From Saprospiraceae bacterium (GTDB lineage: Bacteria; Bacteroidota; Bacteroidia; Chitinophagales; Saprospiraceae), in the NCBI GenBank assembly GCA_019187225.1, contig JABAQQ010000005.1:62001-126000 (forward strand): a DNA stretch of 64,000 nucleotides, given 5' to 3'. The translations under genes and the position numbers were made by a program. The notes beneath the pieces are model-generated. The model searched no databases. It was not told the origin of the DNA and saw only the letters and a list, made by a program, of their open reading frames with translations. Below are positions 401-60,101 of the stretch, piece after piece. Each line of letters begins with the position of its first letter. Positions within the stretch are counted from its first letter, which is position 1.

Positions 401-956
401 GTGGATTTGTTGAATTGTGGAATTGGTGGATTGGGGAATTGGTGGATTGGTGGATTGGTGGATTGGTGGATTGGGGATTGGTGGATTGGTGGATTGGGGA
501 TTGGTGGATTGGGGATTGGTGGATTGGGGATTGGTGGATTGGGGATTGGTGGATTGGTGGATTGGTGGATTGGTGGATTGGGGATTGGTGGATTGGGGAA
601 TTGGTGGATTGGGGATTGGTGGATTGGGGATTGGTGGATTGGGGATTGGTGGATTGGGGATTGGTGGATTGGGGATTGGTGAACTGGTCAGCCTTGAGGG
701 TGTTCAATTACCTGCAGAATGGTGTGAAGCATACGCGAAGGGCCTCGGGCAACCGCGTCGAGTTTTCTCGAAAATCTGTGTCAAAAATTTTCAAGTCGTT
801 GATTTTCAGCAACAATAATTGTTATTGACACAGATTTTTGAACATCGTCACCGCGCACCAATTCACCAATCCCCCAATCCCCCAATTCACCAATTCACCA
901 ATCACCAATCCCACCAATCACCAATCCCACCAATCACCAATCCCACCAATCCACCA
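401..956. repeat. Long tandem-word inverted repeat (locus A, GGATTGG words)
   Basis: From about 401 to 690 the plus strand is an almost pure array of GGATTGG(T) words of 7-8 bp. From about 857 to 956 the complementary words (CCAATCC, CCAATCACC) appear and run up to the DUF1800 stop codon at 957-959. The two arms could pair into a very long imperfect hairpin. The middle (691-856) holds a second inverted repeat (AATCTGTGTCAA near 772, TTGACACAGATT near 826) and the string GAGGGTGTTCAA near 696, a core also seen at other loci. The apparent Trp/Gly/Ile-rich reading frames here are translation of the repeat, not genes. The element sits between two same-strand genes that normally form a pair. Confidence 0.9.
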
Positions 957-2609
957 TCAGAGCAATTGATATTCTGCTGAATACATGATGGCATTGATCA
1001 ACCTTCCGAGGGGTATTTTCACCTCGGTGTCGTCGCCGGTATTCAGGTAGTTCTGCCACTCATAGGTCCAGTCGGCAGGCGGCAGCTGGTCGAGGAAAAC
1101 CGTGTTGTAGAAATAATTGAAGCGGTCGGTGTCGGTTTCTTCCGGCAGCAGGTACTCCAGCAGGTCCTGCACCAACACGTACGGATCGGTGGCATCGCTG
1201 ATGACGCCGCTGGTTTTTACCCAATTCGCCGCGTCGAACTGCGCGCCTAAGGGGTCGTCGGGCGAACCGCCGGTGCTCAGTTTGCCGCTCAGGAGCATGG
1301 TGGGTATCTTGTACCGCGCCACGATGGTGCTCGCATTGAACCACTGCCGGTGGAAATCGGGTTCCTGGAAATATCCCGGGTATCCGGATACATCGGGTGG
1401 GAAAAAGAGCGGCATATTGGCCTGTTCGAGCATTCTGCCGAGAACGCCGCGGCCAAAGAACTGAAAATATCCTTCGAGATCGGCGTCGGCGGTGGGCACG
1501 GTCAGTTCGAAGAACGAGATGCCCTGCAAGGCCAGCTCGACCGGCGATTTGATGAGGCCGCCGATGATCTCATCCTTGTTGTCGGAGTCGTCGGCGTCGA
1601 AAAAGTGCTGGCTTTGAAAGAGTTGTTCCAGCACGGGTTTGATCTCGAAGTTACCGGCAATGAAGGTATCGGCGAGGGGTGTGATGATGTCGCTTTCGAT
1701 TTCAGGTGTGATGTAGCGGCTCACGAAGAAGCGGTAGAGCCTGCGGCAGAAGTTTTTGGCCGTTTCGGGTTGGGCAAAGGTCATGTTCACGAAGGCATCG
1801 AGTTCGAGCCACATGCCGTCGGCGTCGGTGGCTGCGGCAATGGTCGTTCCCTGGAACTTGTCGCTGAATTTTTTTTCAAACTCGTCGTGCTGCTCGAAGT
1901 TGACGCCGCCGCGCGGAATATTGGTTTCAGTATCGAGCACATTGCGCTGGCCTTTCACACGAAAGCCGGTCAGGACTTTAGCGGCCTGCACGATGTCGTC
2001 TTCGGTGTAGTTGGTATAATCGCCGGGGCCGATCTGCGGTCCTTTGCCGATGGTGAACAATTCAAAAAACTCGCGGGCAAAGTTCTCGTTGGGATTGTCC
2101 TTCGAGTTTTCCGTATTGTTCAGGTATTTCAGCATGGCGTTGTCCACGACCATCTTGGCGATCAATTTTTTAAAATTGCCCAAAGCGGCCCAGCGCAACA
2201 GCGTCAGATAGTCGAAGTAATGAACGGTCATAAAAGCCGTCATCGCTACGGAATTGAACTGATGGAGAAAGAACGTCATGCGATGGCCGATACCCGGATC
2301 GTTCAGGGCTTCGTTGATCCACCAGCAGGAGAGCCAGGGGCGCAGCTTGAAGTCTTCAGTGGGTGGAAGGCTGCCGGGTGGAAGGCACCAGGTTCCTGGG
2401 GAAGCGCTGCCTTGTGCTTCGTTGGTGTCGTAGATCGGCTGGTCTTGTTGCAAGGGATACAATTGGAGGAGCGAAGCCACCGCCTGGGCTGCCGTTTGCC
2501 CGGCCATTTCGTCTACTTTGGCTTTGGTGTAGCGGTAACTGGTGCGGCGCAGCAAATGCGCTGCATACCGATGACCTAAGGCGCCTTGCATGGGTGTAAG
2601 TGATGCCAT
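957..2609 (-). CDS. DUF1800 domain-containing protein
   Basis: A 550-residue protein with the DUF1800 pattern: an N-terminal HLLRRTSYRYTKAKVDEM segment, a central DNAMLKYLNNTENSKDNPNENFAREFFELFTIGKG motif split here as DNAMLKYLNN and NENFAREFFELFTIG, and ADTFIAGNFEIKPVLEQLFQ followed by PEDVSGYPG-like PPDVSGYPGYF near the C-terminus. DUF1800 proteins are usually exported and encoded beside DUF1501 proteins, as here. No obvious signal peptide is visible at this start, so export is uncertain. Length is normal for the family. The stop codon is immediately followed by the locus A repeat. The molecular function of the family is unknown. Confidence 0.88.
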   Translation of the reverse strand: MASLTPMQGALGHRYAAHLLRRTSYRYTKAKVDEMAGQTAAQAVASLLQLYPLQQDQPIYDTNEAQGSASPGTWCLPPGSLPPTEDFKLRPWLSCWWINEALNDPGIGHRMTFFLHQFNSVAMTAFMTVHYFDYLTLLRWAALGNFKKLIAKMVVDNAMLKYLNNTENSKDNPNENFAREFFELFTIGKGPQIGPGDYTNYTEDDIVQAAKVLTGFRVKGQRNVLDTETNIPRGGVNFEQHDEFEKKFSDKFQGTTIAAATDADGMWLELDAFVNMTFAQPETAKNFCRRLYRFFVSRYITPEIESDIITPLADTFIAGNFEIKPVLEQLFQSQHFFDADDSDNKDEIIGGLIKSPVELALQGISFFELTVPTADADLEGYFQFFGRGVLGRMLEQANMPLFFPPDVSGYPGYFQEPDFHRQWFNASTIVARYKIPTMLLSGKLSTGGSPDDPLGAQFDAANWVKTSGVISDATDPYVLVQDLLEYLLPEETDTDRFNYFYNTVFLDQLPPADWTYEWQNYLNTGDDTEVKIPLGRLINAIMYSAEYQLL

Positions 2610-2689
2610 GTTCGGAAAAATTAAGTGGTTAAAAGAAAAGAAAAAATCGGTTCAAAACGCAGTCGCGACGAAGGAGGCTTACAAGTTGG

Positions 2690-2800
2690 AGATTCGTTTA
2701 GATGGTGATTTGTCTATTTGCCAACTACCCTGTCCGTGAGGGTGTGACATCATAACCAAATCTTCAAATCAACAAATCAACAGACTGGTAAAACAGCCTC
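2690..2800. repeat. Inverted word repeat (locus B, GATTTG words)
   Basis: The left arm contains GGTGATTTGTCTATTTG and the right arm CAAATCTTCAAATCAACAAATCAACAG. The centre has ACCCTGTCCGTGAGGGTGTG, where ACCCT and AGGGT can pair. On the minus strand the element begins GAGGCTGTTTTAC, resembling the outer stems of loci E and K. It lies between the end of the gene at 3143-5101 and the start of the DUF1800 gene, both on the minus strand. It belongs to the same family as loci E, F and K. Confidence 0.7.
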
Positions 2801-2946
2801 GAAAGAAACAAGGTGGGCCATTTGAGGGCGGGATGTTCAGCGCTGACGATTGCCGGCGGCGACTGCGTATTGGACATTCGGATTAAACTGGGGCATTAAC
2901 GAGTCGTTCAGGATTTTATTAAGTGGCGTTTAGTTAAATTTTGAAA

Positions 2947-2984
2947 AAATAAAACGGCGCTCCAGAGGGCAGGAACGCCGTTTT
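2947..2984 (-). terminator. Rho-independent terminator for the 3143-5101 gene
   Basis: AAAACGGCG at 2951-2959 pairs with CGCCGTTTT at 2976-2984, with further pairing of TCC and GGA inside. On the minus strand the stem is followed by TTTTATTTTTTC. It lies about 160 bp past the stop codon of the upstream minus-strand gene, with the locus C hairpin in between. Confidence 0.7.
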
Positions 2985-3020
2985 TATAACCCGAAATGGT
3001 TATTATTAAAAAAAATTAGT

Positions 3021-3125
3021 ATGCAGACAAAATAAATTGACATTGGATGTTGGACATTTTGACCTTGACAGCCAGCCAATCATTTAGTCAAACATCCAAT
3101 GTCAAAAAATCCAATGTCTGCCTGC
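3021..3125. repeat. Inverted word repeat (locus C, GACATTGGATGTT words)
   Basis: The left arm TTGACATTGGATGTT (near 3037-3051) is complementary to AACATCCAATGTCAA (near 3090-3104), and outer GCAGACA pairs with TGTCTGC near 3115-3122. The right arm repeats the word (CATCCAATGTC, TCCAATGTC). It begins about 20 bp past the stop codon of the 3143-5101 gene. It has the same architecture as the other word hairpins but its own word. Confidence 0.75.
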
Positions 3126-3142
3126 TTGTTTTTCGCAAAACA

Positions 3143-5101: not shown

Positions 5102-5325
5102 AAAATGATGATTTTGAAAAAAATTAAAAAAGGAAAAAGAAGTGTTGAAACGGGGCAAAAAAACAGCTGAAAGCTATGAACTTGTTAGTCATGTTGGAAA
5201 AACCTTTTAGCCCGGATGTAAAAATTTGACTGAAATAACTAATCTTCAAAAACAATTTTACTAATAATCAGATATTTAAAGAACCTTTTTGACCTAAATT
5301 GGAGGGCATATTTATGATTTCTTAG
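5102..5325. other. Intergenic region, AT-rich, no gene seen
   Basis: This is the leader of the 3143-5101 gene and the space after the small lipoprotein gene. It is AT-rich with poly-A runs. No reading frame with family features and no clear TAnnTTTG promoter box was found. Confidence 0.5.
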
Positions 5326-5368
5326 AAAAAAAAAGGCCAAACGATGTTTTTATGGTCGCTTAGCCTTG
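5326..5368 (-). terminator. Rho-independent terminator for the 5391-5867 lipoprotein gene
   Basis: Read on the minus strand, AAGGCTAAGCG pairs with CGTTTGGCCTT (11 bp including two G-U pairs) and is followed by a run of nine T. It starts 23 bp after the lipoprotein stop codon. Confidence 0.8.
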
Positions 5369-5390
5369 AAAAACATATATGATCCTATAA

Positions 5391-7935: not shown

Positions 7936-8075
7936 GGAGGCTGTCTCATAAGTCTGTTTATTCGTTTATTCGTGGATTTGTTTATTTGAAAATGACCCTT
8001 ATTATGAGGGTGTTGCAAAACAAACAAATCCACGAATAAACAAATCACCGGCTTGTGAGACGGCCTCTTTTTTTT
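7936..8075. repeat. Long word hairpin / bidirectional terminator (locus E)
   Basis: The outer stem GAGGCTGTCTCATAAG (from about 7938) pairs with CTTGTGAGACGGCCTC (to about 8067), followed by eight T. Inside, GTTTATTCGTGGATTTGTTTATTTG-type words pair with their complement at 8021-8047. The loop region carries GACCCTTATTATGAGGGTGT, whose ACCCT/AGGGT can pair. It sits between convergent genes, so it probably terminates transcription from both sides. The outer stem is nearly identical to that of locus K, 38.6 kb away. Confidence 0.9.
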
Positions 8076-10184: not shown

Positions 10185-10330
10185 TACAAGCCGTTTTTTT
10201 GATGATTCGGTGATTCGGCGATTTGTTTATTTGATGATTTGGCGATTTGTTTATTCGTTGCTCCCGCGTGAGCAGGGTGTTCAACAAATAAACAAATCGC
10301 CAAATACACAAATAAACGGTTCACCCAGAC
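10185..10330. repeat. Word hairpin (locus F, GATTTGTTTATT words)
   Basis: The left arm has GGCGATTTGTTTATTTG and GGCGATTTGTTTATTCGTTG; the right arm has CAACAAATAAACAAATCGCC and further CAAATAAAC words. The loop holds CTCCCGCGTGAGCAGGGTGT, a variant of the core in loci B, E and K. It lies between the convergent suhB and giant HYR genes and probably terminates both. Confidence 0.85.
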
Positions 10331-10339: not shown

Positions 10340-13300
10340 TCAATGTTGCAGCATAAACCGCACCGTTTGCCGCTCTCCATTTTCTGTGACAATTTCAAGG
10401 AAATAAAGGCCGCCGGGCAAGTCCTTCGGCAACTGGATTTCCTGTGGGGCGACATCGGCAGTCAAAGCGGTCTGTTGTATACGTCCTCCTCTGCTGTCAA
10501 ACACCTGTACCTGTACCTGTTCGCCCTGCCATTCCGTAAGATCGGCAAAGAGCAAACCGGTGGTCGGATTGGGGAACACTGTAAAATGACCGGGTGAACG
10601 CTCCAACGACTTTTTGAAAATTGTCATATCCGCTTTTTTCGGTCCCGGTTTGGGCTCCGGCTCCACAATACAGTCGGCCGTACTCAGGTAACCTTCCAAA
10701 AATATCTTGGGTTGCAAGCGCACGATGACATGGATAAATGGCGGGTTTGCCAACGAGGGCAGGGTATATTCAAATATATCCGACGCACCGCTGGCTATGC
10801 CGATAATAGCTGAATAGAAACGAATGGAATAGAAAGGTGAGAAATTCGGATTGCGCACACTGTATTCGTTTCCACTGGGAGCAGTATAAATCGAATTGTT
10901 CGGTGGCGCCAGGGCCGTCACACCGGGAGGCAAGGAGAAAGCCACGTACATCAATTTGTTCACGCAGTTATTCGTCACCCGGATCTTATAGGTATTGTTC
11001 CCTGCATTATCTTCGGTGATTTCGATCAATTCAAATTTCACGCAACCGGCAATCACTTCGTCGCAGGGTAATTCGGGCGCTTCCACAACAGTCACGTTGA
11101 AGCAGCAGGTAGCCGTATTGCCGCAGCTGTCCCTGGCAATATAACAAACCGTCGTTGTTCCTAACGGGAAAACGCTGCCCGAAGGCAATCCCTCCGTAAG
11201 TTCTAGTTCAATGCCGGGACACGGACAATCGGTCGTCGCAAGAGGCGGTGTATAAACCACTACAGCCGGATCCGTGTCCACAGTGATGTCACTCGGACAG
11301 GTCAACGTTATAGCGGTCGTCAAGTCGCTGATCTTCAGCGTTTTTTCCGTCTTGTCACAGGAGCAGGATTGGCCGAACGAGATCACGATGGTTTCCGAGC
11401 CTTCGGGCAGCATATCATCCACGATGGTAATGGGAATGATCAACTGGTTTTGTCCTGCCGGGATGGTGTACGAAGCGTTAAGCGGCGAGTAGTCCGCACC
11501 GGAAGTGGCCGTACCACTAATTGTAAGCGTTATGGTGAGGGGTTGGCTTGGGTTGATGCCCGCGCGGTCTAACACCAGATCTACTTCACCGCAGATTTCA
11601 TAGGCTTCCGTTGCATTCGGGACACCGTTGACGATGAAATAAGCCGTCGGTGCAGCTTGATCGTTGACGGCAATCGTCCTGCTGCAAGTGGAAGTGTTCA
11701 GGCAATCGTCCGTCGCCGTCCAGGTCCGTGTCACGCTGTACTCCTGCGCGCAGGCGCCCGGCGTGGTCACATCACTGAAGGTGATCGTGGGCGTGGCGTC
11801 ACAGGCATCGGTGGCAGTAGCGGCAACCCATTGCGGCGTGGCAGGGCATTCGATGGGCGTTGTCTGCGCGGCGCAGGTGATGACCGGCGCAGTGTGGTCT
11901 TCCAAGGCGATGGACCTGCTGCAGGTGGAAGTGTTCAGGCAATCGTCCGTCGCCGTCCAGGTGCGCGTGACGATGCTCACCTGAGGACAGACGCCTGGTG
12001 TGGTCACGTCGCTGAAGGTGACCGTGGGTGTGGCGTCACAGGCATCGGTGGCAGTAGCGGCAACCCATTGCGGCGTGGCAGGGCATTCGATGGGCGTTGT
12101 CTGCGCAGCGCAGGTGATGACCGGTGCGGTATTGTCTTCCACCGTGACGGTCCTGCTGCAGGTGGAAGTGTTCAGGCAATCATCCGTCGCCGTCCAGGTC
12201 CGCGTCACGCTGTACTCCTGCGCGCAGGCGCCCGGCGTGGTCACGTCGCTGAAGGTGACCGTAGGTGTGCCACCGCAGTTGTCGGTGACGGTGGGAGCGA
12301 CCCATTGCGGCGCGGCAGGGCATTCGATGGGCGTTGTCTGCGCAGCGCAGGTGATGACCGGCGCGGTCTGATCGTCAACGGTGATGGTCTGGGTGCATGT
12401 TGCGATATTGCCACATTCGTCTTCTGCCTGATAAGTCCGTATGACTGTATACCTGTTGTCGCAAGTCTGGTTTGTAATTTCATCCGAGACGAAGGTGATC
12501 ACCGTACCACCGCCGCCCGGGCCCGGTTGTTGCTGACATTCATCCCAAAATTCATTTATTGCCGTAGTAGCACTGGCCAAGAGTCCTCCAAATCCACCGG
12601 GATAAATACTCCCGTTGCAAATGCTGGCCAGGTACAGATTTGACAACGCAAGGAGGTCATTTACAGTGGCTTCACTATCGAGATCCAATTCTTCAATTTG
12701 GTCGGGGGTTAATGCGCAGCTAAGCGCAGCGGCGCCAAGGTCTAACCCATCATTGAACTCCAGGTTGTATCGTATATTTAATTGCAAGGCGATGACTTGT
12801 CCTGCCAGGTTATTATCCAACGCTTGGGTGCAATCCAGTGTATAGTTCTGAGGCAATGGATCAGATGGCCCACCGGCAGATAAAATATCCAGGACACACT
12901 GGGTGGTGGCAACCTCAAAACCGCAGTTACCACTCCCGCCTCCGACTACAATCGGCCCTGCCATTAGCAAAATGTCAAGGGTTTCAGACGTGTTCAGACC
13001 ATTCGAATGTATTCCACCCGCATTGCCGTAAGCGCCTTGTGTATAGGTACAAAATGCTTTGCAAGTATTGCACAAAGAGGTGTCTAAAGCAAAAACAAGT
13101 GAGGTATCCGGCGCCGGTATCTCGTCGGCACAATCTACCGTGATTGGGTCCGGGCAGATGATGATCGGTGGAGAATCGTCCAGGACAGAGATGATCTGGT
13201 CACAGGTAGCAGTGTTGCCGCATTCGTCCGTAGCCAGGTAGGTGCGCGTCAGGGTGTAGTTGTCCGGGCAAATTTGGTTGCTGATCACATCGCCAACGTG

Positions 13301-16300
13301 TACAATGATGACCGGACCGCCGCAATTGTCAGTAGCGCCTATGATGGTGGGATCTGCCGAAGGCACTGCGGTTGCACAGGGAACGATGGTACCTGCCGGG
13401 CAAATGATATTTGGTCCGACCTGATCGTTGACGGTGATGATCTGCTCGCAGGTAGCGGTGTTGCCGCACGCGTCCGTGGCCATGTAGGTGCGCGTCAGGG
13501 TGTAGTTGTCAGGGCAGGTCTGGTTGCTGATCACATCGCCGACGTGCGATACAGTGACTGCTCCACCACAGTTATCACTGACCATCAAAGCGTTGGGGTC
13601 TGGTGCCGGCACCTCGCTTGCGCAGGAGACGGTTATTGGCGCGCAGGCAATGTCCGGCGCAGTGTTGTCCTCCACTGCGATGGTCCTGCTACAAGTCGAA
13701 GCGTTCATACAAGCGTCCGTGGCCGTCCAGGTGCGTGTCACGCTGTACTCCTGCGGGCAGGCGCCCGGCGTGGTCACGTCGTTGAAGGTCACCGTAGGCG
13801 CGGCGTCACAGGCGTCGGCGACTGTCGGAGCGACCCATTGCGGTGTGGCAGGACATTCCACGGGCGATATCTGGGCGGCGCAGGTGATGACAGGTGCGGT
13901 GTTGTCCTCTACGACGATAGTCCTGCTACAGGTTGACGCGTTCATACAAGCGTCCGTGGCCGTCCAGGTGCGCGTCACGCTATACTCCTGCGCGCAGGCG
14001 CCCGGCGTGGTCACGTCGCTGAAGGTGACCACTGGCGCGGCGTCGCATGCGTCGGCGACGGATGGAGCGACCCATTGCGGTGTGGCAGGGCATTCCACGG
14101 GTGATACTTGTGCGGCGCAGGTGATGACCGGAGCGGTGTTGTCCTGTACGGCGATGGTCCTGCTACAAGTTGACGCGTTCATACAAGCGTCCGTCGCCGT
14201 CCAGGTGCGCGTCACGCTGTACTCCTGCGGGCAGGCGCCCGGCGTGGTCACGTCACTGAAGGTGACCACTGGCGCGGCGTCGCATGCGTCGGCGACGGAT
14301 GGAGCGACCCATTGGGGTGTGGCAGGGCATTCCACGGGCGACATCTGTGCAGCGCAGGTGATGACCGGAGCGGTGTTGTCCTGTACGACGATGGTCCTGC
14401 TACAGGTTGACGCGTTCATACAAGCATCCGTGGCCGTCCAGGTGCGCGTCACGCTGTATTCCTGCGGACAGGCGCCCGGCGTGGTCACGTCGCTGAAGGT
14501 GACCACCGGCGAGGGGTCGCATGCGTCGGCGGCGGTGGCTGCAACCCATTGGGGTGTGGCAGGGCATTCGATGGGCGAAGTCTGCGTGGCGCAGGTGACG
14601 ACCGGTGCGGTGTTGTCTTCTACAATGATGGTTCTGCTGCATGTCGACGAGTTCATACAATCGTCCGTGGCCGTCCAGGTACGTGTCACACTGTATTCCT
14701 GCGGACAAGCGCCCGGTGTGGTCACGTCATTGAAAGTCACCGTAGGTGTGGCATCACAGGCATCGGTGGCAGTAGCGGCAACCCATTGCGGCATAGCAGG
14801 GCATTCTACGGGCGATGACTGTGAAGCACAGGTGATGACCGGTGCGGTGTTGTCTTCCACTGAGATGGTCCTGCTGCAAGTCGAAGCGTTCATACAAGCG
14901 TCCGTCGCCGTCCAGATGCGCGTCACGCTGTACTCCTGCGAACAGGCGCCCGGCGTGGTCACGTCGCTGAAGGTGATAGTGGGCGCGGCGTCACAGGCGT
15001 CGGTAGCGGTTGGAGCAACCCATTGCGGTGTGGCAGGGCATTCTACGGGTGAAGACTGCGAAGCACAAGTGATGATCGGTGCGGTGTTGTCCTCCACTGA
15101 GATGGTCCTGCTGCAAGTCGATGCGTTCATACAAGCGTCCGTGGCCGTCCAGGTACGCGTCACGCTGTACTCCTGCGGGCAGGCGCCCGGTGTGGTCACG
15201 TCGTTGAAGGTGACCGTGGGCGCGCCGTCACAGGCGTCAGTGACGTTGGGAGCGAACCATTGCGGTGTGGAAGGGCATTCGATGGGCGATATCTGCGTAA
15301 CGCAAGTGACGACCGGTGCGGTGTTGTCTTCCACCGTGATGGTCCTGCTGCAGGTCGAAGCGTTCATACAAGCGTCCGTGGCCGTCCAGGTGCGCGTCAC
15401 ACTGTATTCCTGCGGACAGGCGCCCGGTGTGGTCACGTCATTGAAAGTCACCGTAGGTGTGGCATCACAGGCGTCTGTGACGGTCGGAGCAACCCATTGA
15501 GGCATAGCAGGGCATTCCACGGGTGTTACTTGTGCAGCGCAGGTAACGACCGGAGCGGTGTTGTCTTCCACTGAGATAGTCCTGCTACAGGTTGACGCGT
15601 TCATACAAGCGTCCGTGGCCGTCCAGGTGCGCGTCACGCTGTACTCCTGCGGACAAGCGCCCGGCGTGGTCACATCGTTGAAGGTCACCGTAGGCGCGGC
15701 GTCACAGGCGTCGGCGACTGTCGGAGCGACCCATTGCGGTGTGGCAGGGCATTCCATGGGCGATATCTGGGCAGCGCAGGTGATGACAGGTGCGGTGTTG
15801 TCTTCCACTGAGATAGTCCTGCTACAGGTTGACGCGTTCATACAAGCATCCGTGGCCGTCCAGGTGCGCGTCACGCTGTACTCCTGCGCGCAGGCGCCCG
15901 GCGTGGTCACGTCGTTGAAGGTGACCACTGGCAAGGGGTCACACGCGTCGGCGACGGATGGAGCGACCCATTGCGGTGTGGCAGGGCATTCCACGGGCGA
16001 TATCTGGGCGGCGCAGGTGATGACCGGGGCGGTGTTGTCTTCCACCGCGATGGTCCTGCTACAAGTCGAAGCGTTCATACAAGCATCCGTGGCCGTCCAG
16101 GTGCGCGTCACGCTGTACTCCTGCGCGCAGGCGCCCGGCGTGGTCACGTCGCTGAAGGTGACCACTGGCGAGGGGTCGCATGCGTCGGCGGCGGTGGCTG
16201 CAACCCATTGGGGTGTGGCAGGGCATTCCACGGGCGACATCTGTGCTGCGCAGGTGATGATCGGTGCGGTGTTGTCCTCTACGACGATGGTCCTGCTACA

Positions 16301-18850: not shown

Positions 18851-19219
18851 TTTTACACCTTTAAAGTTGAAAAAATTTATGAGCATTCCTGACAGAAGCA
18901 GGGAGGTTTTTTAAATCGCTGAACAGTAAAAAGATTCTGGATTTGCAGTTCTGAAACCCCATATCCACGGATAATCTGTTCGGCAACCGGTATGAAATTA
19001 ATCCGTCACAATGGATGGTAAAACCGGAAGAAAAATGGGCGCGTTCGTTTTTTTCCAGACAAAAATAACATCTGATTCACGCTTTGCACCCTTTTATTTG
19101 AAAAAGATACTTTTTTATTTCAATAATACACCATGCGTGGTACAACTGCGGTGGCAATTGGAGGCATCAACTTTTTTTTAGATGGATTATGCCCCGATGA
19201 GTTGAGTATATTATACGAG
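18851..19219. other. Intergenic leader of the giant HYR gene
   Basis: No gene is seen. A TATTTTTG string on the minus strand (19060-19067) matches a -7 box but has no -33 partner and would give a leader over 200 nt, so I do not call it a promoter. Confidence 0.4.
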
Positions 19220-28834: not shown

Positions 28835-29773
28835 ATGTCCGCCATACAACGCCATACCGATCTTATCCGCGCCGAAGCCCGGCGACTGGGTTTTGGGTTC
28901 GTCGGCTTCGCCCGCGCCGAACGGCTCGACGAAGCGGCCCGGCGTTTGGAACAATGGCTCCGCGCCGGCGCCCACGGACGAATGGCATACATGGAAAACC
29001 ATTTCGACCTGCGCGTGGACCCTACCCTGCTCGTGCCGGGCGCAAAGACCGTTATTTGCCTGACGTACAATTATTTTACGGAAGAAAAACAACAAGACCC
29101 GGAAGCGCCGAAAATCGCCACCTATGCTTATGGCGAGGATTATCATTTTGTGATAAAAGACAAACTGAAATCTTTGTTGCAATTCATGCAGACTGAGGTC
29201 GGCGAGGTAAGCGGCCGCTGTTTCGTGGACAGCGCCCCGGTGATGGAGCGCGAATGGGCGCAGCGGGCGGGACTTGGCTGGAACGGCCGCAATACCCTGA
29301 CGATCAACCCCCGGCGCGGCTCGTTTTTCTTTCTGGCCGAGATCGTCTGCGATCTGCCGCTGCTCTACGACGATCCCATCCGCGACCACTGCGGCACCTG
29401 CCGGCGCTGCATAGAGGCATGTCCGACGGAAGCCATCAGTCCCGAAGGTTACTTTCTCGACGCATCGAAGTGTATTTCTTACCTGACCATCGAATTGCGC
29501 GACGAAATCCCTCCCGAATTCCGGGGTAAAATGGACAACTGGATGTTCGGCTGCGACATATGCCAGGATGTTTGTCCCTGGAACCGCTTCTCCGAACGCC
29601 ATTCGGAGCCCGCGTTCGAGCCCCACCCCGATCTGCTTGAGTTGACGCGCCGCGACTGGCAGGAATTAACAGAGGAGGTTTTTGGCAAAATATTCAAAAA
29701 ATCGGCAGTGAAAAGAGTGAAATACGCCGGATTAAAGCGGAATATCGGGTTTTTGAGGGAAAGGAATATTTGA
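28835..29773 (+). CDS. queG: Epoxyqueuosine reductase
   Basis: 312 residues, normal length for QueG, which reduces epoxyqueuosine to queuosine in tRNA using cobalamin and two 4Fe-4S clusters. Visible: GFVGFARAERLDEAARRL and GRMAYM near the N-terminus, PGAKTVICLTYNYF, GWNGRNTLTINPRRGSFFFL, EIVCDLPL, then CGTCRRCIEACPTEAI and GCDICQDVCPWN, the two cluster-binding cysteine sets, and the YLTIELRDEIPPEF stretch between them. It is divergent from the trans-sulfuration gene. Its stop codon TGA forms part of the outermost stem of hairpin locus G. Confidence 0.95.
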   Translation: MSAIQRHTDLIRAEARRLGFGFVGFARAERLDEAARRLEQWLRAGAHGRMAYMENHFDLRVDPTLLVPGAKTVICLTYNYFTEEKQQDPEAPKIATYAYGEDYHFVIKDKLKSLLQFMQTEVGEVSGRCFVDSAPVMEREWAQRAGLGWNGRNTLTINPRRGSFFFLAEIVCDLPLLYDDPIRDHCGTCRRCIEACPTEAISPEGYFLDASKCISYLTIELRDEIPPEFRGKMDNWMFGCDICQDVCPWNRFSERHSEPAFEPHPDLLELTRRDWQELTEEVFGKIFKKSAVKRVKYAGLKRNIGFLRERNI

Positions 29774-30067
29774 CGTTGGACTATTGGACGTTGGACTGTT
29801 GGACGTTGGACGTTGGACTGTTGGACGTTGGACTGTTGGACGTTGGACTGTTGGACTGTTGGACTGTTGGACTGTTGGACTGTTGGACGTTGGACATTTA
29901 GACACTGGACTTCGTAACGCAACTTTTGTTATGCAGTCCAACGTCCAATAGTCCAACGTCCAATAGTCCAACGTCCAACAGTCCAATAGTCCAACAGTCC
30001 AACAGTCCAACGTCCAACGTCCAACGTCAAATGTCCAACGTCAAATAGTCCAATAGTCCAACGTCAA
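29770..30067. repeat. Long word hairpin (locus G, GTTGGAC words)
   Basis: From 29770 to about 29905 the plus strand is an array of GTTGGAC(T) words of 7-8 bp; from about 29937 to 30067 the complement GTCCAAC/AGTCCAAT array appears. The outer 20 bp, TTGACGTTGGACTATTGGAC at 29770-29789, pairs exactly with the last 20 bp at 30048-30067. The left arm includes the queG stop codon, and the right arm ends 10 bp from the stop of the M36 peptidase gene. The loop is GGACTTCGTAACGCAACTTTTGTTATG split here as TTCGTAACGCAAC and TTTTGTTATG. No coding content is supported. Confidence 0.93.
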
Positions 30068-30077: not shown

Positions 30078-33000
30078 TCAGCGGATCACCACCTTTTTCA
30101 CGCTGCTGCCTGCCGCGTTTTCCATACGCACCATGTACACGCCTGCCGGTACCTGCTGCACGTCGAGCGCAACAGTTTGGCCATTCGCGATGCCGTCGAA
30201 GTTGCGGCTGAGCACGATACGACCATCCGCGCCGACGAGTTGTATCTGTACCGGACCGTTCAATGCCTGACCGGGAGTGAGATACAGGAAGTCGAACGCC
30301 GGGTTGGGTTGTACCTGCATGGGCAATTGGTTGGCGACGGAAGGCTCGTTGGCGTCTAAGAGACCGGGCTGCACGATGACGCCGCGCTCTGGCGCTTTGG
30401 CGCAGACGTGGTCGCTGCCGCTGGTGGCACATGCCTCCGTATCGAAGTTGTACAAGTCCATCACTTCCACTTCATCTACGTACCAGGTACCCACCGGAAG
30501 CGAGCCTTCATCCAGATTCGTACCGAAGCGGAAACGAATGCGTACTTCTTCGCCGGCATAATCGCTCAGATCGAAGTACGACTGCACCCAGCCGCCGGAA
30601 TTGCCGGAGAAACCACTGAGGTATGGCAGCGCGAAGGTGCTGTAGGCTACTTTACGGGGATACGCATTGCGGAATCCTTTATCCGCCAGAATGGGATACC
30701 AAAGCGGATCACCCGCTTTTTGTATCTCGACGATGCCGGCATCCACACCTGTCTCGGTATCATACTGATGCCAGAAGCGCAAGACGGGTTTATTGCCGGT
30801 CACTGTGAAAATGGTAGGAGAAAGCGGTTCCAGCGTAAAATCATTCACTTCGGCCGTGCTTTCGGCCCTCCAGGAAGCGGCTCCTGATTTTGCCACGCTG
30901 TTCTGCAACACAAAATACTGGTCGCCCGCGGGATCCTGGTTGAAGGAATCCCAATCATCATCCGAATCCATCATATCCTGGTAATAGCGGAACGACCCGA
31001 TAGCATCGGTTGATTTGGCGGTATAAGTAAGCACGGTCACCTTGCCGGTGGGCATATCACCGAGGTTCCAGGTGACATAACCGTTGGAATAGGTGCCGCC
31101 GTTGGAAGCGGAGACGAAGGTCAGCCCTAAGGGCAGTTCGTCGGTCACGATGACGTTGGGTGCCGTTTCGTCTTTGTGGTTGGTGACGGTAATTTTGAAC
31201 ACGGCATTTTCTCCCGGCTCGATAAGCGGAGTAGTAGTTTCCTTTTTGATTTTCAACTCCTTGATACAATATGGAATGGGATCGAAGTTTTCCACCCCGT
31301 CGGCGGCGTCGTTGCTGCTGCCCTGGTCGGCGTAATACCCCATACCGCGACGGGCAAAAACGGAACTGATGAGGCAGGTGTCGGCGCCTTCATAGTTGAG
31401 GATGTCGGCCATCATGATGGCATCGCGGCCATCAATGAATCCGGGGCCGCAGGGCTGGTATTTCATGCCGTCCATCACGAGTTGGATGGCGCGGGCATTA
31501 CCGCTATTCAGGTTGGTGAGATCGGGATCGAAGCCGTATTTTTCCACCATCGCCCAGTAAAGGTCCCAGGTAACTGCCGCCCATATTTCGCCCAAGTAGT
31601 GTACTTCGGCATTTTCCGCAACGGTGGCAAATGTGATCGGATTGATGCTCATGTCGGTCGAATAGGGATAGCGGCGAATGCCTTCGCCATTGATATCCTG
31701 ACGCAGCACGTACGTGCCCACGCCGCGGCGTTGCCCGGCCACATCGCCGGGTTTGGCGGTGGTAATCAGGCTGAACCAGTCGCTCCATCCCTCGCCCATT
31801 TGTTCGGCGTTGAAAAGGCAACTGGCAGTATTTGGCCCCCCGGTTAATCGGTTGGAAATACCATGGCCGTATTCATGCGCGATGATGCCGTTGTCGAAGT
31901 CGCCGTCCAGCAGATCGGGGCCGGAAGAGGGGGGCAGGGAAAGCGATACCACCAGACCGTTGCCTGCGTATTGGCGGATCGCGTCGCAAGTGGATTTTTT
32001 CAACATCACGACCGGAATGGTCACCTGGTCGCCCGATGTGCCGGCGCCCATATTGACGAGCCCTTCTTCGTGGTTGCAGATGATGCAACCGATGGCGCCG
32101 GCGTTCTGCGCGTTGAGCGCTTTTACGCCGAACTGGCAGACGGTGCGGTCTACCATCGCAATTTTACCGGTAAGATCATTTATAAGCGGGTTGCAGCCCA
32201 AGGTTGCCTGCACAGTGCCGTCGTCCACGATCTCCACCGCGCCTGTCACCGGAATATCCGTGATGGGCGCACCCCAACCGGATGTAGTGGAACCGGAGTA
32301 AGCGCCCGCGATGGTTGCAGGGGCATCTACCGTGAGCAACTGGCCGCCGGAACGCGTCCACACGAACATTTGCATGCGACCGCTGCCGCCGTCGGCAGGC
32401 GTGGAGAAGTTGGCATTGTTGACCGACTGGCTGGGCAGCGAATAGCCGTCAATGGCATTGGCCTGCACAGGGTCATTTCCCAGACCGCCATTGCCGTAGT
32501 TGTTTTGCTGAAAATTACCTGCCTGTTCGTCGAATCCGAAACGGTACGTGATGTCGTGCATCATATTGTTCATATAGAACAGGTTGGTAATGGCGGCTTT
32601 CAGGTTGCCCAACGGCTCATTGTTGGGATCGAAGGGAAAATCGAAATTGAGCGCGGCGCCACCGTCGGCAGATTCTGCCGCCGAACCGGTATCGTCGTCG
32701 TTGCGGTCATCGTAAGCCCACGTGTTGTTGCCGCGGGTGTAGGTGTATTCGGCGCCTGCAGCGCCGTTGGTGTCGTGCCAACCGTAGGGAGAAGCGACCG
32801 GGTCGGCGGGATTGACCAGGAGCTGGCGGTTGCCGTGGATAGGGCTCTCGGTCGGCAGGGCGAAGACGTTGTACGTGCCGTCGGCCTGCAAATCGGAAGA
32901 TTGGGGATTGGGGGTTGGGGATTCGGGATTGGGGATTCGGGATTGGGCATCTTCGATGGCGCAATCATCTCCGGCGCGGTGCGCGTGGCCCGCTTTACAG

Positions 33001-33748: not shown

Positions 33749-33821
33749 GCGGACGCCGAAAAAAATAAGGGGTTTTGCCAAGAGGCGCTCATTTGGGTGG
33801 CTGCGTTATCCCCGCTAATAC

Positions 33822-33930
33822 CTGTACATTGAAAATTGGTCATTGTACATTGAACATTTTTAAATTTAACATTTATAAATTTATTTATTTTTAAATGACC
33901 AATTTACAATGATCAATGACCAATGTACAA
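33822..33930. repeat. Word hairpin (locus H, GTACATTG/TTGGTCATTG words)
   Basis: The left arm holds TGTACATTGAAAATTGGTCA and TTGTACATTGAAC; the right arm holds AATGACCAATTTACAATG, TCAATGACC and AATGTACA. The interior is a pure A/T stretch. It lies 24 bp past the CocE/NonD gene stop codon (on the minus strand) and upstream of the M36 promoter on the other side, so it could terminate nothing but the M36 upstream side or, more likely, shield the M36 transcription unit from the CocE gene. Confidence 0.75.
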
Positions 33931-33953
33931 GTTATAGTGGGCCGGGCAAGTCC

Positions 33954-39282: not shown

Positions 39283-39640
39283 CGGACGTTGGACGGTTGG
39301 ACACCGGACGGTTGGACACTGGACAATTTACACTGAGCATTGAATGCAATATTAAGATTTGATGTAAAAACTTTGGCAGGGGCAGTGCCCCGAAAGATTT
39401 GTAGTGATTTATAAACAAAATCCACTGTGGAGGGGCAGCGCCCCGAAACATATTCCGGGGCGCTGCCCCTCCACGAAATAATATAGGTCTTTCTGCTACA
39501 AATTTTTCGGGGCGCTGCCCCTGCCTAAGTTTTTACGATTTGATTTACAGACGATTCGCATCCAATATTCAACCGTCCAACGTCCATACATCCAACGTCC
39601 AACGTCCATACATCCAACGTCCAACGTCCAAAAATCCAAA
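39283..39640. repeat. Nested inverted repeat (locus I) with GGGGCAGCGCCCC cores
   Basis: Three nested levels. Outer: GGACGTTGGACGGTTGGAC words at 39283-39325 against CCAACGTCC/CATACATCCAACG words at 39560-39640. Middle: AAAAACTTTGGCAGGGGCAG at 39367 and CCCCGAAAGATTTGTAG pair with CTACAAATTTTTCGGGGCG at 39496 and GCCCCTGCCTAAGTTTTT. Inner: GTGGAGGGGCAGCGCCCCG (39427-39445) pairs exactly with CGGGGCGCTGCCCCTCCAC (39455-39473). Each GGGGCAGCGCCCC is itself nearly palindromic, giving four copies. It lies between the UbiA gene start (minus) and the plus-strand gene at 39733, that is, between divergent genes, so it cannot be a simple terminator for either. Confidence 0.92.
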
Positions 39641-39732
39641 GTCTGAAAATTTTGTTACCCAACATTTAAAGTGCAAATATGGGGACAACCGAAAGCCCCG
39701 GATTGCCTGTCTCCGTGTAAAAATCACATACC

Positions 39733-42960: not shown

Positions 42961-42996
42961 AATTGGACTGTTGGACGTTGGACTGTTGGACGTTGT
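42961..42996. repeat. Short GTTGGAC word array (locus J)
   Basis: TTGGACTGTTGGACGTTGG then ACTGTTGGACGTTG fills the whole gap between the stop codons of two convergent genes. It is the same word as loci G and I, but with no complementary arm. Confidence 0.85.
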
Positions 42997-46586: not shown

Positions 46587-46725
46587 GAAAGAGGCTGTCT
46601 CGTAAGTCGGTGATTTGTTTATTTGTGGATTTGTTTATTTGAAAACAACCCTGGTTATGAGGGTGTAACGCAATATACAAATCCACAAATAAACGAATAA
46701 ACAGACTTACGAGACAGCCTCTTTT
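46587..46725. repeat. Long word hairpin / bidirectional terminator (locus K)
   Basis: The outer stem AAGAGGCTGTCTCGTAAGTC (46589-46608) pairs exactly with GACTTACGAGACAGCCTCTT (46703-46722), followed by TTTTT. Inside, GATTTGTTTATTTGTGGATT-type words pair with ATATACAAATCCACAAAT and TAAACG words. The loop has ACCCTGGTTATGAGGGTGT. It lies between convergent genes (46561 plus, 46783 minus). Outer stem and loop core match locus E. Confidence 0.92.
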
Positions 46726-54757: not shown

Positions 54758-54801
54758 AACCATTTCGGAGATAAATGAATTTGTTGCTTCCCAAGGGGGG
54801 A

Positions 54802-54809
54802 CAAAAGTA
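54802..54809 (-). promoter_or_regulatory. Candidate -7 box (TACTTTTG) for the GH144-like gene
   Basis: TACTTTTG on the minus strand lies 44 bp before the start codon; no TTTG is present at -33. Confidence 0.4.
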
Positions 54810-55060
54810 GCAGTTTTGATCCCGGTTAAATACAGCATTGTCCCAATATATCTGAAATTGACGAAAAAAACGCAATACCGCGCCATTCCCGCGGAGTTTT
54901 CAGCAAAATAGTTCCGCATCGACCACACCAGGTTATCCGCCTTTCCCGCATTAACATAAAAGTTACCTTAAACCAACGCTGAATTCACACATCACTTTGA
55001 TAAACAACAATTTAACCATAACTTAAACCTTCCTTTTTCGCTGTCCGCCAAAGGCCCTTC
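54810..55060. other. Divergent intergenic region between the two glycan loci
   Basis: It separates the GH144-like gene (minus) from the second susC (plus). AT-rich; no gene and no sensor or regulator gene were found. Confidence 0.4.
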
Positions 55061-55068
55061 TACTTTTG
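55061..55068 (+). promoter_or_regulatory. Candidate -7 box (TACTTTTG) for the second susC
   Basis: TACTTTTG matches TAnnTTTG. A T-rich stretch lies about 21 bp upstream but reads TTTC rather than TTTG. It would give a leader of about 125 nt. Confidence 0.4.
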
Positions 55069-55199
55069 CCGCCGGATTGATACCGGGAATATGCAGCCCG
55101 GTTCTACGCTCCATTTACCACTTCCCCTGCCCGCCATTTGGGTATTTCCCGTTCAAACGGCCTAATCAGTTATTAACAACACTAAACTTTGTTCCATCT

Positions 55200-58100: not shown

Positions 58101-58502
58101 TACGACCTCAATGTAGAAGGCAATGGCGTGGTTGGTCAGGGCGTGGTGCAAAACGCCGACGGCACTTTCAGCGCCAACACGAAAAAACTCAGCGCCCGCG
58201 AATGGCACACTTCCTACACCCTGGGTCGGCGCCTCATCGAAGGCGTCATCTACGACGCTTCCTTCATCAAACTGCGCGAAGTACGCCTCGGCTATACCCT
58301 GCCGAACAGGTTGTTCGGAGGCAGTTCGCTGCGCGACTTCAACGTCAGCCTCGTAGGCCGCAACCTCGCGCTGTGGACCGATGTGCCGCACATTGACCCG
58401 GAGACTTCCTCTACTTCCGGCGGAACGGTCATCCCCGGCGTGGAATCCGTGGCACTGCCCTCCACCCGGAGTTGGGGCGTGAATGTGAATTTCCGGTTTT
58501 GA
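55200..58502 (+). CDS. SusC/RagA family TonB-dependent transporter (second)
   Basis: 1100 residues from MKALFQTFKGAFCALAFTLLCVATADAQ at 55200. CarboxypepD-like domain (RISGTVTDAETNEPLPGATVTVQ), then QEVIVTALGISREKKSLGYSAQEV, RGERSLNINRNQPLFVVDGVPIS, VESITVLKGASAAALYGSRANNGVILITTKSGK, and a barrel ending RSWGVNVNFRF. The plug matches the larger SusC subgroup that pairs with SusD-like_2 proteins. Substrate unknown; not necessarily a sugar. The stop codon TGA overlaps the start of hairpin locus L. Confidence 0.95.
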   Translation: MKALFQTFKGAFCALAFTLLCVATADAQRISGTVTDAETNEPLPGATVTVQNQSRGAVTDAEGKFALDAVPGDVLIISLVGYAPQTITVSNSTVYVALSQGEALQEVIVTALGISREKKSLGYSAQEVKGDDLNKARETNIINTLSGKVAGLTIVGNPSGIGSSSRITIRGERSLNINRNQPLFVVDGVPISNEFRGSSGNSYQDADFGNGAGYVNPDDVESITVLKGASAAALYGSRANNGVILITTKSGKNTKGIGVSVNSTITFENVLRLPEYQNVYGQGLGGEFEFKDGNGGGNRDGVDENWGPKMEGQLIKQFDSPTTNGFRGGDVGNLLPSIGPVDLDQQLAARGDIIATPYAAHPDNIRDFFETGMTNTHNVAVSGSNDKGDFRLSYTWLDQTGTVPNTDLKRNTVAFAGGLNLGSKLRVRTAINYLNGASDNRPNLSYGTENLMYLFNCWFGRQINTASLRDYWMAGREDLNQFNFNYNYHDNPYFNVYENTNSQDIDRVYGNLSVTYDFTPELSLMVRAGTDVNSEFRARRRAYSTQRFQRGSYREERINFSETNTDFLLNYKRALGQRFDLNLGVGGNAMRQVGRFSDVIAPELAVPGIFTLSNSRVALQNLTNTPYTEKRINSLYATGQLGFNNYLYLDLSARNDWSSTLPTDSRSYLYYAANLSAVLTDAFNITNSALSYAKVRFGVAQVGNDTDPYQLQTIFNSQTPVQGSPSYSESSVLVNPELKPEISTSIETGFDVRFFRNRIGLDFTYYHTESKNQILPIQLSGTTGYSARIINAGLIQNQGIEVTLNATPVRTKNFSWDIALNFSRNRSEVKELFTDPVSGQEVTNYVLANRYVSVEARVGEQMGNMYGIGFARVSSDPNSPYYDATGQNVGQIVYNSEGKPIATDKTILLGNYNPDWLGGIGNTFTFKGLSLGILFDVRSGGEVYSHTQTVGREGGQIIETLEGRADGYDLNVEGNGVVGQGVVQNADGTFSANTKKLSAREWHTSYTLGRRLIEGVIYDASFIKLREVRLGYTLPNRLFGGSSLRDFNVSLVGRNLALWTDVPHIDPETSSTSGGTVIPGVESVALPSTRSWGVNVNFRF

Positions 58503-58612
58503 GTGAGGGAGTGTTTGGGTGTGGGAGTATTTGAGTGTTTGATATCCACTCACCCCTCAACCAATCTCGCACCCAAACACTCAACCACTCAACCACTCAA
58601 ACACTTCTACTT
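58501..58612. repeat. Word hairpin between susC and susD (locus L, GAGTGTTTG words)
   Basis: The left arm GAGTGAGGGAGTGTTTGGGT through TTGAGTGTTTG starts inside the susC stop codon; the right arm CACCCAAACACTCAACCACT through CAACCACTCAAACACTT precedes the susD start by 20 bp. Unlike the first susC-susD pair (28 bp gap), this pair is 129 bp apart and filled by the hairpin. Confidence 0.88.
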
Positions 58613-58631
58613 CATTTCAACAACACACACA

Positions 58632-60101
58632 ATGAAACATATTTTTCTCAAATCATTGACCATCTTCGGTTTGATAGCCCTCTCCTCCGGCTGCACCAAA
58701 GACTTCGACGACATCAACACCACCCCCAACGCTCCCGTTGCCGTCAATTCGGCACTCCTGCTCCCCCAGATCCAGCGCGACATGATGGGCGCCCTGATGG
58801 GCGAAACCTGGGGTATCGGTAACATCGTCATCCAGCATACGGCCAAAAACCAGTTTGTGAACGAAGACCGCTACCTCTGGGGCGAACTCAACAGCATCTG
58901 GGACAATGTGTACAGCAATATGCGCGACGTGAACAACATCATCCGGCAAAGTGAAGCCAACGGTGAGAACAATTACAAAGGCGTGGCGCTCGTGATGAAA
59001 TCCTGGATGTTTTCGCTGGCGACCGACGCCTATGGTGATGTGCCTTATTCCCAGGCCATTCAAGCCAAAGAAGGTCAAAACTACCCTGCTTACGATCCGC
59101 AGGAACAGATATACAACGGCATTCTGGCGGATTTGAAAGAAGCGGGCGGTCTGCTCGGTTCCAGCAGCGAATTGGTCGCCGGCGACATTATTTACAACGG
59201 CGACGTTTCCAAATGGAAAAAACTCGCCAATTCGCTCCGCATCCGCGCCCTGATGCGCATTTCGCGCAAACGCGACGTCAGCGCCGACCTGAAAGCCATT
59301 CTGGACAACCCGGCAGCCAATCCTGTCTTCGAAAGTATCGCCGACAATGCGGTATATACTTATAAATCCACTTCGCCCGACCAGTTCCCGCTTCATACTT
59401 CCCGCACCGGCTCTTTCAATGAGTTCCGAGCCAGCAAAACGCTCATGGATACGCTCCAGACCCTGAATGACCCCCGCATGCCCATTTTCTTCCGCCCCAC
59501 TCCTGCCACCGACGGCACCGCCACCCCCGAATACGTCGGAATACCCAATGGCCTGAACGACGTAGACGCCTTGCAATACAACGGCGGACCGCAAAATCAG
59601 TCCACTGTGGGCAGGCTGTATTTTGAAGAAGCGGTGTCGACACAGGGACTGAGTATTGCCAAAGGCGTGATCATGACTTATGCCGAATTGCAGTTTCTGC
59701 TTGCCGAAGCAGCCGAAAAAGGCTTGATCTCCGGCGACGCCAAAACATATTATGAAAACGGCGTAAACGCTTCGTTCGCATTTTATGGTCTGTCTGCGCC
59801 GGCGGATTACCTCAACCGCCAGGAAACGGCCTACGCGGGTACGCAGCAGGAAAAACTTTCCAAAATCGGTTTCCAAAAGTGGATTTCACTGTTCTTCCAG
59901 GGGTTGGAAGCGTGGTTCGACTGGCGGCGCACCGGCATTCCGGCGCTCCAACCAGGCGTGTCCAACCAAAACAACGACATGATACCCGTGCGTTTCCGCT
60001 ACCCCATCAGCGAACAATCGCTCAACACGGCCAGCTACAACGAAGCCGTGCAGCGCCAGGGGCCGGATGATCTGAACTCCAAAATGTGGCACCTGAAATA
60101 A
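58632..60101 (+). CDS. SusD/RagB family nutrient-binding lipoprotein (SusD-like_2 type)
   Basis: 489 residues from MKHIFLKSLTIFGLIALSSGC at 58632; lipobox SSGC. It begins TKDFDDINTTPNAPVAVNSALLLPQIQRDMMG and has NAIR-like NNIIRQSEANGENNYKGVALVMKSWMFSLATDAYGDVPYSQAIQA, IYNGILADLKEAGGLL, NSLRIRALMRIS, TYAELQFLLAEAAEKGL and GLEAWFDWRRTGIPAL, typical of the SusD-like_2 family that partners the larger SusC subgroup. Its downstream terminator is at 60130-60164. Operon with 55200-58502. Confidence 0.93.
   Translation: MKHIFLKSLTIFGLIALSSGCTKDFDDINTTPNAPVAVNSALLLPQIQRDMMGALMGETWGIGNIVIQHTAKNQFVNEDRYLWGELNSIWDNVYSNMRDVNNIIRQSEANGENNYKGVALVMKSWMFSLATDAYGDVPYSQAIQAKEGQNYPAYDPQEQIYNGILADLKEAGGLLGSSSELVAGDIIYNGDVSKWKKLANSLRIRALMRISRKRDVSADLKAILDNPAANPVFESIADNAVYTYKSTSPDQFPLHTSRTGSFNEFRASKTLMDTLQTLNDPRMPIFFRPTPATDGTATPEYVGIPNGLNDVDALQYNGGPQNQSTVGRLYFEEAVSTQGLSIAKGVIMTYAELQFLLAEAAEKGLISGDAKTYYENGVNASFAFYGLSAPADYLNRQETAYAGTQQEKLSKIGFQKWISLFFQGLEAWFDWRRTGIPALQPGVSNQNNDMIPVRFRYPISEQSLNTASYNEAVQRQGPDDLNSKMWHLK

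What the first reader, a model, noticed from the sequence alone, without database searches (positions are those of the whole stretch)
401..60000. A family of stop-codon-linked tandem-word hairpins with variable words but a fixed layout
At about ten places (401-956, 2690-2800, 3021-3125, 7936-8075, 10185-10330, 29770-30067, 33822-33930, 39283-39640, 46587-46725, 58501-58612) a G/T-rich array of short words is followed by its C/A-rich complement. The words differ (GGATTGG, GTTGGAC, GATTTGTTTATT, GAGTGTTTG, GTACATTG), yet the order is always G/T arm first, and several arms start inside or beside a stop codon. This implies a shared process that builds or copies short words into paired arms, not simple descent of one repeat. 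I know of no named element with this behaviour.
Basis: partly seen in the sequence, partly recalled or inferred. Interest (0 to 1): 0.85.

Follow-up and report, generated by a model that had tools for sequence, protein, structure and literature searches.

The report
Fast-changing tandem-word hairpins between genes
Many gaps between genes in this uncultured bacterium hold short DNA words repeated in a row and then mirrored as their complement; the words differ between loci and between species, and two close relatives suggest that many arrays grow in place from short seeds, a many-word form of a pattern already reported for one word in plant-infecting bacteria.

Summary
Eight of the ten loci are strong hairpins, a ninth has significant outer word arms, one is weak. 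In a 464-kb sample of the genome, 43 intergenic word hairpins fall in 19 word clusters. The G/T arm comes first in 37 and last in 3, so "always" is too strong. Stop-codon linkage is weak; depletion between divergent genes is clear.

In two sister genomes about 95% identical, one word (GGTTTGARGG) counts 507 against 12. At six of six compared loci a long array in one faces a short seed in the other, and both arms are larger together in 5 of 7 changed pairs. So many hairpins grow in place; slippage plus template switching between arms is inferred. Two or more of the ten loci are copies of one dispersed MITE-like element.

The layout has a published single-word precedent, GGGAATC inverted pairs in Xanthomonas with the same polarity (PMC4692102). 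New here: many words per genome, lineage-private dialects, lineage-specific expansion. Arrays read G/T outward from the nearest gene boundary even when unpaired (35 of 39). Function is unproven.

The parts
401..956 (.). Word hairpin, GTGGATTG/GGGATTG words 401-688, complement 856-956, with a second palindrome in the loop (about 773-841); between a DUF1800 gene and the next minus-strand gene
   Evidence: score 65; tandem repeats; arm keto 0.70 and -0.70; DUF1800; loop palindrome by eye
2680..2800 (.). Weak, degenerate hairpin; ends and loop resemble the dispersed element (by eye)
   Evidence: score 10.5, 4 of 300 shuffles as good
3037..3105 (.). Short hairpin of GACATTGGA-type words
   Evidence: score 16.5; 0 of 300 shuffles as good
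7937..8067 (.). Copy of the dispersed MITE-like element with ends GAGGCTGTCTC/GAGACGGCCTC and GTTTATTCG/GATTTG word arms; T-run follows
   Evidence: score 29.5; family list
10193..10317 (.). Word hairpin GATTTG/GTTTATTTG, words shared with the dispersed element but without its ends
   Evidence: score 26.5 for 10225-10317; cluster of 7
29763..30067 (.). GTTGGAC(T) word hairpin filling the gap between queG and a convergent M36 peptidase gene; begins at the queG TGA
   Evidence: score 85.5; Pfam; sequence
33811..33941 (.). A/T-rich hairpin of GTACATTG-type words, not G/T first
   Evidence: score 22.5, keto about 0
39283..39643 (.). Outer TTGGAC word arms (39283-39340 and 39574-39643) enclosing an inner palindrome with ends GTAAAAACTT (39364-39536)
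   Evidence: inner score 34; outer arms 17.5, 0 of 300
42963..42995 (+). Unpaired TTGGACTG array beside a stop codon
46588..46724 (.). Copy of the dispersed MITE-like element, flanked by A and T runs
   Evidence: score 39; exact core found five times in the genome
58498..58605 (.). TTTGAGTG word hairpin starting at a TGA stop
   Evidence: score 17 for 58510-58605; 1 of 300 shuffles as good; stop at 58500-58502

Best explanation
These are rapidly evolving intergenic inverted repeats whose arms are tandem arrays of mostly 7-10-nt words. Many arise in place: a short seed word or small hairpin at a gene junction expands, by replication slippage (inferred). The two arms stay complementary because DNA synthesis switches template between them, the quasipalindrome mutation route (inferred), and arrays of the same word probably also exchange sequence across the genome (inferred), which would give each lineage its dialect. 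A minority are MITE-like elements that carry word arms and insert (one apparent insertion with target duplication and one dispersed family were seen). Gaps between divergent genes are depleted, and arrays tend to lie so that the G/T strand reads outward from the nearest gene boundary; I infer tolerance near genes as the cause, since a leader before a start codon is then C/A-rich and little structured. A role in ending or protecting transcripts is possible and not shown.
For: Six of six compared GGTTTGARGG loci with a long array in G009 have a short seed of that word or hairpin at the matching site of G007 (for one, for five). Genome-wide counts 507 against 12 in these sisters. Arm sizes differ in the same direction in both arms in 5 of 7 changed pairs. 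The variant GGTTTCTGG is in both arms of g9 43859 and absent from the G007 seed. Words replaced in place after a TAG: GATTGGTTC against GCGATTT. Own arms share on average 7.5 16-mers against 1.9 with same-word loci, more in 21 loci and fewer in 5 (G000); 18.0 against 2.1 in G009, more in 11 and fewer in 3. Gene context. Outward polarity 35 of 39 unpaired and 38 of 47 paired arrays. Template-switch mutations that extend identity between imperfect inverted-repeat arms are known in yeast (PMC3820800, abstract).
Against: Arms also change singly: at g9 32342 the arms are 150/142 nt in G009 and 623/42 in G007, and at 159194 almost only one arm differs. Against the best other locus, the own arm wins in only 15 of 32 (G000), 7 of 18 (G009) and 2 of 5 (G007) loci at k=16. 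Loci entered this test because their arms pair, which inflates the within-locus value. Word order in the arms is not a simple copy (by eye). Direction (expansion in G009 or loss in G007) was not fixed with an outgroup; 18 of the 23 other same-genus genomes have none of that word. Slippage does not by itself say why one word grows at many loci in one lineage. Tolerance does not explain the order in convergent gaps (12 of 13 against 0).
Confidence: 0.6

Rival explanations
1. The hairpins are one or more families of mobile palindromic elements (MITE or REP-like) that carry word arrays, and differences between loci and species are insertions and losses.
For: Dispersed element with a fixed core and ends in at least eight copies. 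Apparent insertion of a word hairpin in G009 with ends GTAAAATCTTAG and the 8-bp duplication C(G/A)TTCTTT, empty in G007; another element with similar ends and exact duplication AAGTCATT. Word hairpins: 0 in 253 kb of five genomes without Y1 transposase, 15 in 316 kb of eleven genomes with it.
Against: Six of six compared GGTTTGARGG loci have seeds, not empty sites. No target duplications seen by eye at the dispersed-element copies. The Y1 contrast is confounded with genome size and kinship, and 6 of the 11 Y1 genomes also gave no word hairpin.
Confidence: 0.2
2. They are functional bidirectional transcript-end signals kept by selection, words being free to drift as long as the arms pair.
For: More frequent in convergent than in divergent gaps; very stable RNA folds.
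Against: T-runs at 11 of 94 tails against 7.6% at random intergenic places (3 of 40 against 5.6% and 2 of 30 against 5.7% in the sisters). Selection on pairing alone does not give arrays of the same word or the fixed order. No expression data.
Confidence: 0.12
3. A dedicated enzyme writes the words, for example a telomerase-like reverse transcriptase with a short RNA template; a lineage's dialect is its template.
For: Some words are nearly private to a lineage and occur at many loci; G/T-first order.
Against: Five genomes with 36 to 396 hits of one word pattern (G005, G006, G008, G010, G015) have no PF00078 match, though G010 and G015 are 82% and 77% complete. Many unrelated words coexist in one genome. 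No candidate was found.
Confidence: 0.05

Closest known systems
GGGNATC heptamer repeats of Xanthomonas and Nostoc (Rehm et al. 2015, PMC4692102; abstract, introduction, discussion, section 14 and found passages seen)
   Same: Intergenic heptamer arrays; 70 (Xcc) and 75 (Xac) inverted pairs in convergent orientation; G-rich strand before ORFs on the antisense strand and after stops on the sense strand; few between divergent ORFs; array length varies between relatives.
   Different: One word type per genome with a quadruplex motif and a preference for four units; here many words per genome, a GGG quadruplex motif in 3 of 43 and a GG one in 22 of 43, and word turnover between sisters.
TAACTGA heptamer repeats of Beggiatoaceae, cyanobacteria and a few Bacteroidetes (MacGregor 2015, PMC4679880; abstract and two sections seen)
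   Same: Heptamer arrays in gaps; neighbouring relatives can lack them.
   Different: One word, direct repeats (one indirect repeat reported), mostly before starts in the main genome.
Quasipalindrome template-switch mutation (PMC3820800, abstract seen; others as search listing)
   Same: Copies sequence between arms of imperfect inverted repeats.
   Different: The abstract concerns small changes at one palindrome in a yeast assay, not arrays of hundreds of bases.
REP palindromes (PMC3733652, abstract start and found passages seen) and MITEs
   Same: Dispersed intergenic palindromes; the GAGGCTGTCTC family is of this kind.
   Different: REPs are 20-40 bp with a family sequence; most hairpins here have locus- or lineage-specific words and seeds in place.
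Intrinsic terminators
   Same: Stable hairpin after genes.
   Different: T-runs not clearly above background.

Membership tests
GGGNATC repeat class (Xanthomonas/Nostoc) | inverted pairs with the G-rich arm first | tested here: met
   37 of 43 against 3; consecutive arrays 9 of 9 in G000
GGGNATC repeat class (Xanthomonas/Nostoc) | G-rich strand antisense before starts, sense after stops | tested here: met
   keto-rich strand: starts 40 of 43, stops 33 of 43 arrays, paired and unpaired together
GGGNATC repeat class (Xanthomonas/Nostoc) | GGGNATC unit and quadruplex potential | tested here: not met
   GGG motif in 3 of 43, GG motif in 22 of 43; 19 word clusters
Intrinsic terminator | hairpin followed by a U-tract | tested here: not met
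   T-runs at 11 of 94 tails against 7.6% background; single loci such as 7937 and 46588 have one
MITE | terminal inverted repeats and target duplication at insertions | tested here: inconclusive
   met for one word hairpin and one other element; seeds instead of empty sites at six of six compared loci
REP (RAYT-mobilised) | GTAG or CGTC tag and a linked RAYT gene | not tested
   Y1 family hits exist, 3 in G000; tag and linkage were not examined
Telomerase-like word synthesis | reverse transcriptase in word-bearing genomes | tested here: not met
   no PF00078 match in G005, G006, G008, G010, G015, all with tested words
Quasipalindrome template switching | change in one arm copied from the other arm | tested here: inconclusive
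   coupled arm sizes in 5 of 7 pairs; two loci against; events themselves not observed

The most novel reading that the evidence does not exclude
A trans-acting, sequence-specific factor (a nickase, polymerase or recombinase of unknown kind, not a PF00078 reverse transcriptase) extends chosen words at seeds all over a lineage's genome and copies them into both arms, so that a genome's word dialect is set by an enzyme and switches when it changes, as telomere repeats do between yeasts (comparison recalled).
Probability: 0.1. Interest if true: 0.9.

Novelty: new variant of a known kind. Interest (0 to 1): 0.6.

Why it matters
Paired heptamer arrays were reported for one word in Xanthomonas. Here one genus holds many words that change within the divergence of 95%-identical sisters, often in both arms together. 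That offers a natural experiment on how inverted repeats and minisatellites grow in bacteria and why their strand bias points outward from genes. It also warns that intergenic hairpins in such genomes should not be called terminators or noncoding RNAs by structure alone.

Tried and rejected
A first hairpin scan aligned each window to its reverse complement across the loop and gave wrong scores; it was replaced and not used.

Stop triplets as the cause of the G/T bias: the arm as read holds one in 35 of 43, its complement in 18 of 43; base composition alone can give this. Words born from the gene's own end: it looked so at L040, but the same words recur at many loci and in other species, so it was dropped as a general rule.

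R-loops at gene ends as the cause of the polarity: arrays near starts follow the outward rule more strongly than those near stops (unpaired 24 of 24 against 11 of 15), so sense-strand R-loops cannot be the general cause. Quadruplexes as the common feature: not supported. PF00078 reverse transcriptase as a requirement: not supported. Y1 transposase as a requirement: suggestive only.

Results against or weak: own arm against best other locus about even; the nearest-stop count in G000 was 20 to 16; in the sisters consecutive arrays gave 4 G/T-C/A, 4 G/T-G/T, 1 C/A-C/A; in a first 120 kb of G009 two of three clearly skewed hairpins were C/A first; 20 kb of G008 and 40 kb of G026 had no hairpin of score 15.

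Literature: eight searches, open-licence PubMed Central only. None listed a many-word class of this kind.

Limits: genes were called by my own codon-usage script. 'Word hairpin' means score >=15 (13 or 18 in some calls), best internal lag identity >=0.55 (0.6) and arm >=20 nt (other limits or none in some calls), so counts differ between calls. The ten sister loci were picked by eye from 143 mapped of 191 features; three of them (an insertion, one unchanged, one nearly unchanged) are left out of the 5 of 7, and word cover at 353380 overlaps between strands. Of six GGTTTGARGG loci fetched from G009 contig 1, five were mapped; L201 was left out of the query, and L199 is cut by the stretch end, so only its left flank was compared. 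L202-L210 were fetched and not analysed.
Full report
SETTING. The window is contig 7, bases 62001-126000, of a 7.18-Mb genome in 73 contigs.

THE OBSERVATION. A hairpin alignment with Watson-Crick pairs only finds ten hairpins of score 15 or more in the window and one in five dinucleotide shuffles together. At 39283 word arms enclose another palindrome; 2690 is marginal. Rfam has no match at gathering thresholds.

THE GENOME. In 400 kb of other stretches plus the window there are 80 hairpins of score 15 or more. Forty-three are intergenic and made of words, in 19 clusters by shared 8-mers: TTGGAC, GATTTGTTTATTTG, TTTGAGTG, GACGGTGG, GCAGTGG, ATTGGGAT, GTTATTGG, GATGAAT, CACATAG and others. Among 57 intergenic arrays found without regard to pairing (periods 6-17 searched), 44 have period 7, 8, 14 or 15. 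Word hairpins lie in 13 of 41 convergent, 29 of 158 tandem and 6 of 58 divergent gaps of 30-900 nt; with the sisters 21 of 142, 53 of 526 and 8 of 192 (convergent against divergent p=0.001, tandem against divergent p=0.01). T-runs stand at 11 of 94 tails against 7.6% at random intergenic places.

THE ORDER. G/T first in 37 and last in 3 of 43. Independent of hairpin finding, consecutive arrays less than 700 nt apart are G/T then C/A in 9 of 9 pairs in G000; in the sisters 4 are G/T then C/A, 4 G/T then G/T, 1 C/A then C/A, none C/A then G/T. In the sisters word hairpins are 19 to 5 of 27, in sixteen other genus members 11 to 4 of 15, in 80 QueG-centred loci 38 to 8 of 49. The rule holds for single arrays too: read outward from the nearest gene boundary, unpaired arrays are G/T-rich in 35 of 39 (24 of 24 at starts, 11 of 15 at stops), paired ones in 38 of 47. 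Rehm et al. [quoted passage not shown] So 'G/T arm first' may follow from a polarity that each array obeys.

STOP CODONS. 12 of 51 stop-side ends lie within 5 nt of the stop against 14% by random placement; start-side 1 of 35 against 8%. Of 20 same-genus QueG loci whose stop I could place, 4 have a word array at the stop: GTGAGAGA (L029), GACGATGA (L030, and L031 cut by the contig end) and GAATGAGT (L040). The downstream sequences differ, so these are not one orthologous junction.

DIALECTS. Whole-genome counts over 40 genomes, G000 included: GTTGGAC pairs 260 in G000 and at most 5 elsewhere; GGTTGATGARGGTTGATRA 178 in G007, 92 in G006, 85 in G009, 85 in G016, 23 in G000; three GATGAAY in a row 396 in G006, 264 in G005, 232 in G016 and none in G007 or G009; GGTTTGARGGTTTGARGG 507 in G009, 166 in G022, 37 in G000, 12 in G007. 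Reversed control patterns give 0 to 2 per genome, except 10 in G014. Overlapping matches within one array are counted each.

BREADTH. By a looser word test, 25 of 80 QueG-centred loci from Bacteroidota hold at least one word hairpin, 49 in 1.24 Mb; most lie in near relatives, a few in Mucilaginibacter and other Bacteroidota.

SISTER COMPARISON. G007 and G009 are about 95% identical over most collinear blocks. I compared 520 kb of each: 143 of 191 hairpins and arrays could be mapped. At g9 43859 a 677-nt stretch with GGTTTGARGG and GGTTTCTGG words in both arms faces a small hairpin GGTTTGAGGGC-loop-GCCCTCAAAC. Five more GGTTTGARGG arrays of G009 face short seeds in G007: a small hairpin with arms CTTTGAAGGC and GCCTTCAAA, two words, about five words, one or two words on one side, and a two-arm seed. 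Arm sizes differ in the same direction in both arms in 5 of 7 changed pairs; at 32342 they differ in opposite directions and at 159194 almost only one arm differs. An unpaired array after a TAG has GATTGGTTC words in one sister and GCGATTT words in the other: words are replaced in place. Several word hairpins contain further palindromes in loops or arms. One such element and one word hairpin have ends GTAAAA(A/T)CTTAG and 8-bp flanking duplications, AAGTCATT exact and C(G/A)TTCTTT with one mismatch (by eye). Ends and duplication length recall IS66-type elements (recalled, not tested).

ELEMENT FAMILY WITHIN THE SET. The pattern CCCT-4 to 12-GAGGGTGTNNNNCA has five matches in the genome, all one element. 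A looser search of the fetched stretches lists nine frames, of which L014 looks like a chance match in coding sequence. Copies occur in both orientations (by eye). One (L006 9268) keeps the ends but has GTACATTG words inside: a fixed frame with changed words.

MECHANISM. Shown: complementarity beyond chance, seeds in place at the compared sites, coupled arm size in most changed pairs, private dialects, outward polarity. Supported but biased by how loci were chosen: within-locus sharing of word order (mean 7.5 shared 16-mers against 1.9 with same-word loci in G000; about even against the best other locus). Inferred: slippage as the source of growth, quasipalindrome template switching as the copier, exchange between loci as the source of dialects, tolerance near genes as the source of polarity. 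Not explained: why one word grows at many loci in one lineage, and the order in convergent gaps.

NOVELTY. The kind is known through Rehm et al. for one word. The many-word form, its turnover between sisters and coupled arm growth were not in any paper that my eight searches listed; only open-licence papers were searched.

Noticed in passing
window 11678-17475, inside ORF 10340-18886 (-): Long tandem repeats with 237-246-bp units within a 2,848-aa reading frame, a repetitive protein.
   Followed up: no
window 32899-32947: GATTGGG heptamer array (7 units) inside the M36 peptidase gene, close to the GGGGATT unit reported for Nostoc.
   Followed up: no
G001, G002, G011, G013, G019 (L217-L236): The five sampled genus members without Y1 transposase hits gave no word hairpin in 253 kb; eleven with such hits gave 15 in 316 kb.
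   Followed up: partly
G009 C3:873-888k (L056-L057) against G007 C1:560-579k (L062): A block in which the sisters match each other many times at 73-90% identity, as if long repeated genes differ in copy number.
   Followed up: no
L059:820-1000 and L064:470-660: CACAAAG-type word hairpin in both sisters with the C/A-rich arm first, an exception to the order.
   Followed up: no
window 39364-39536; L009 16162; L006 10575: Palindromic element with GGGGCAGCGCCCCGAAA core and ends like GTAAAAACTT, found nested in word arms at 39283.
   Followed up: partly
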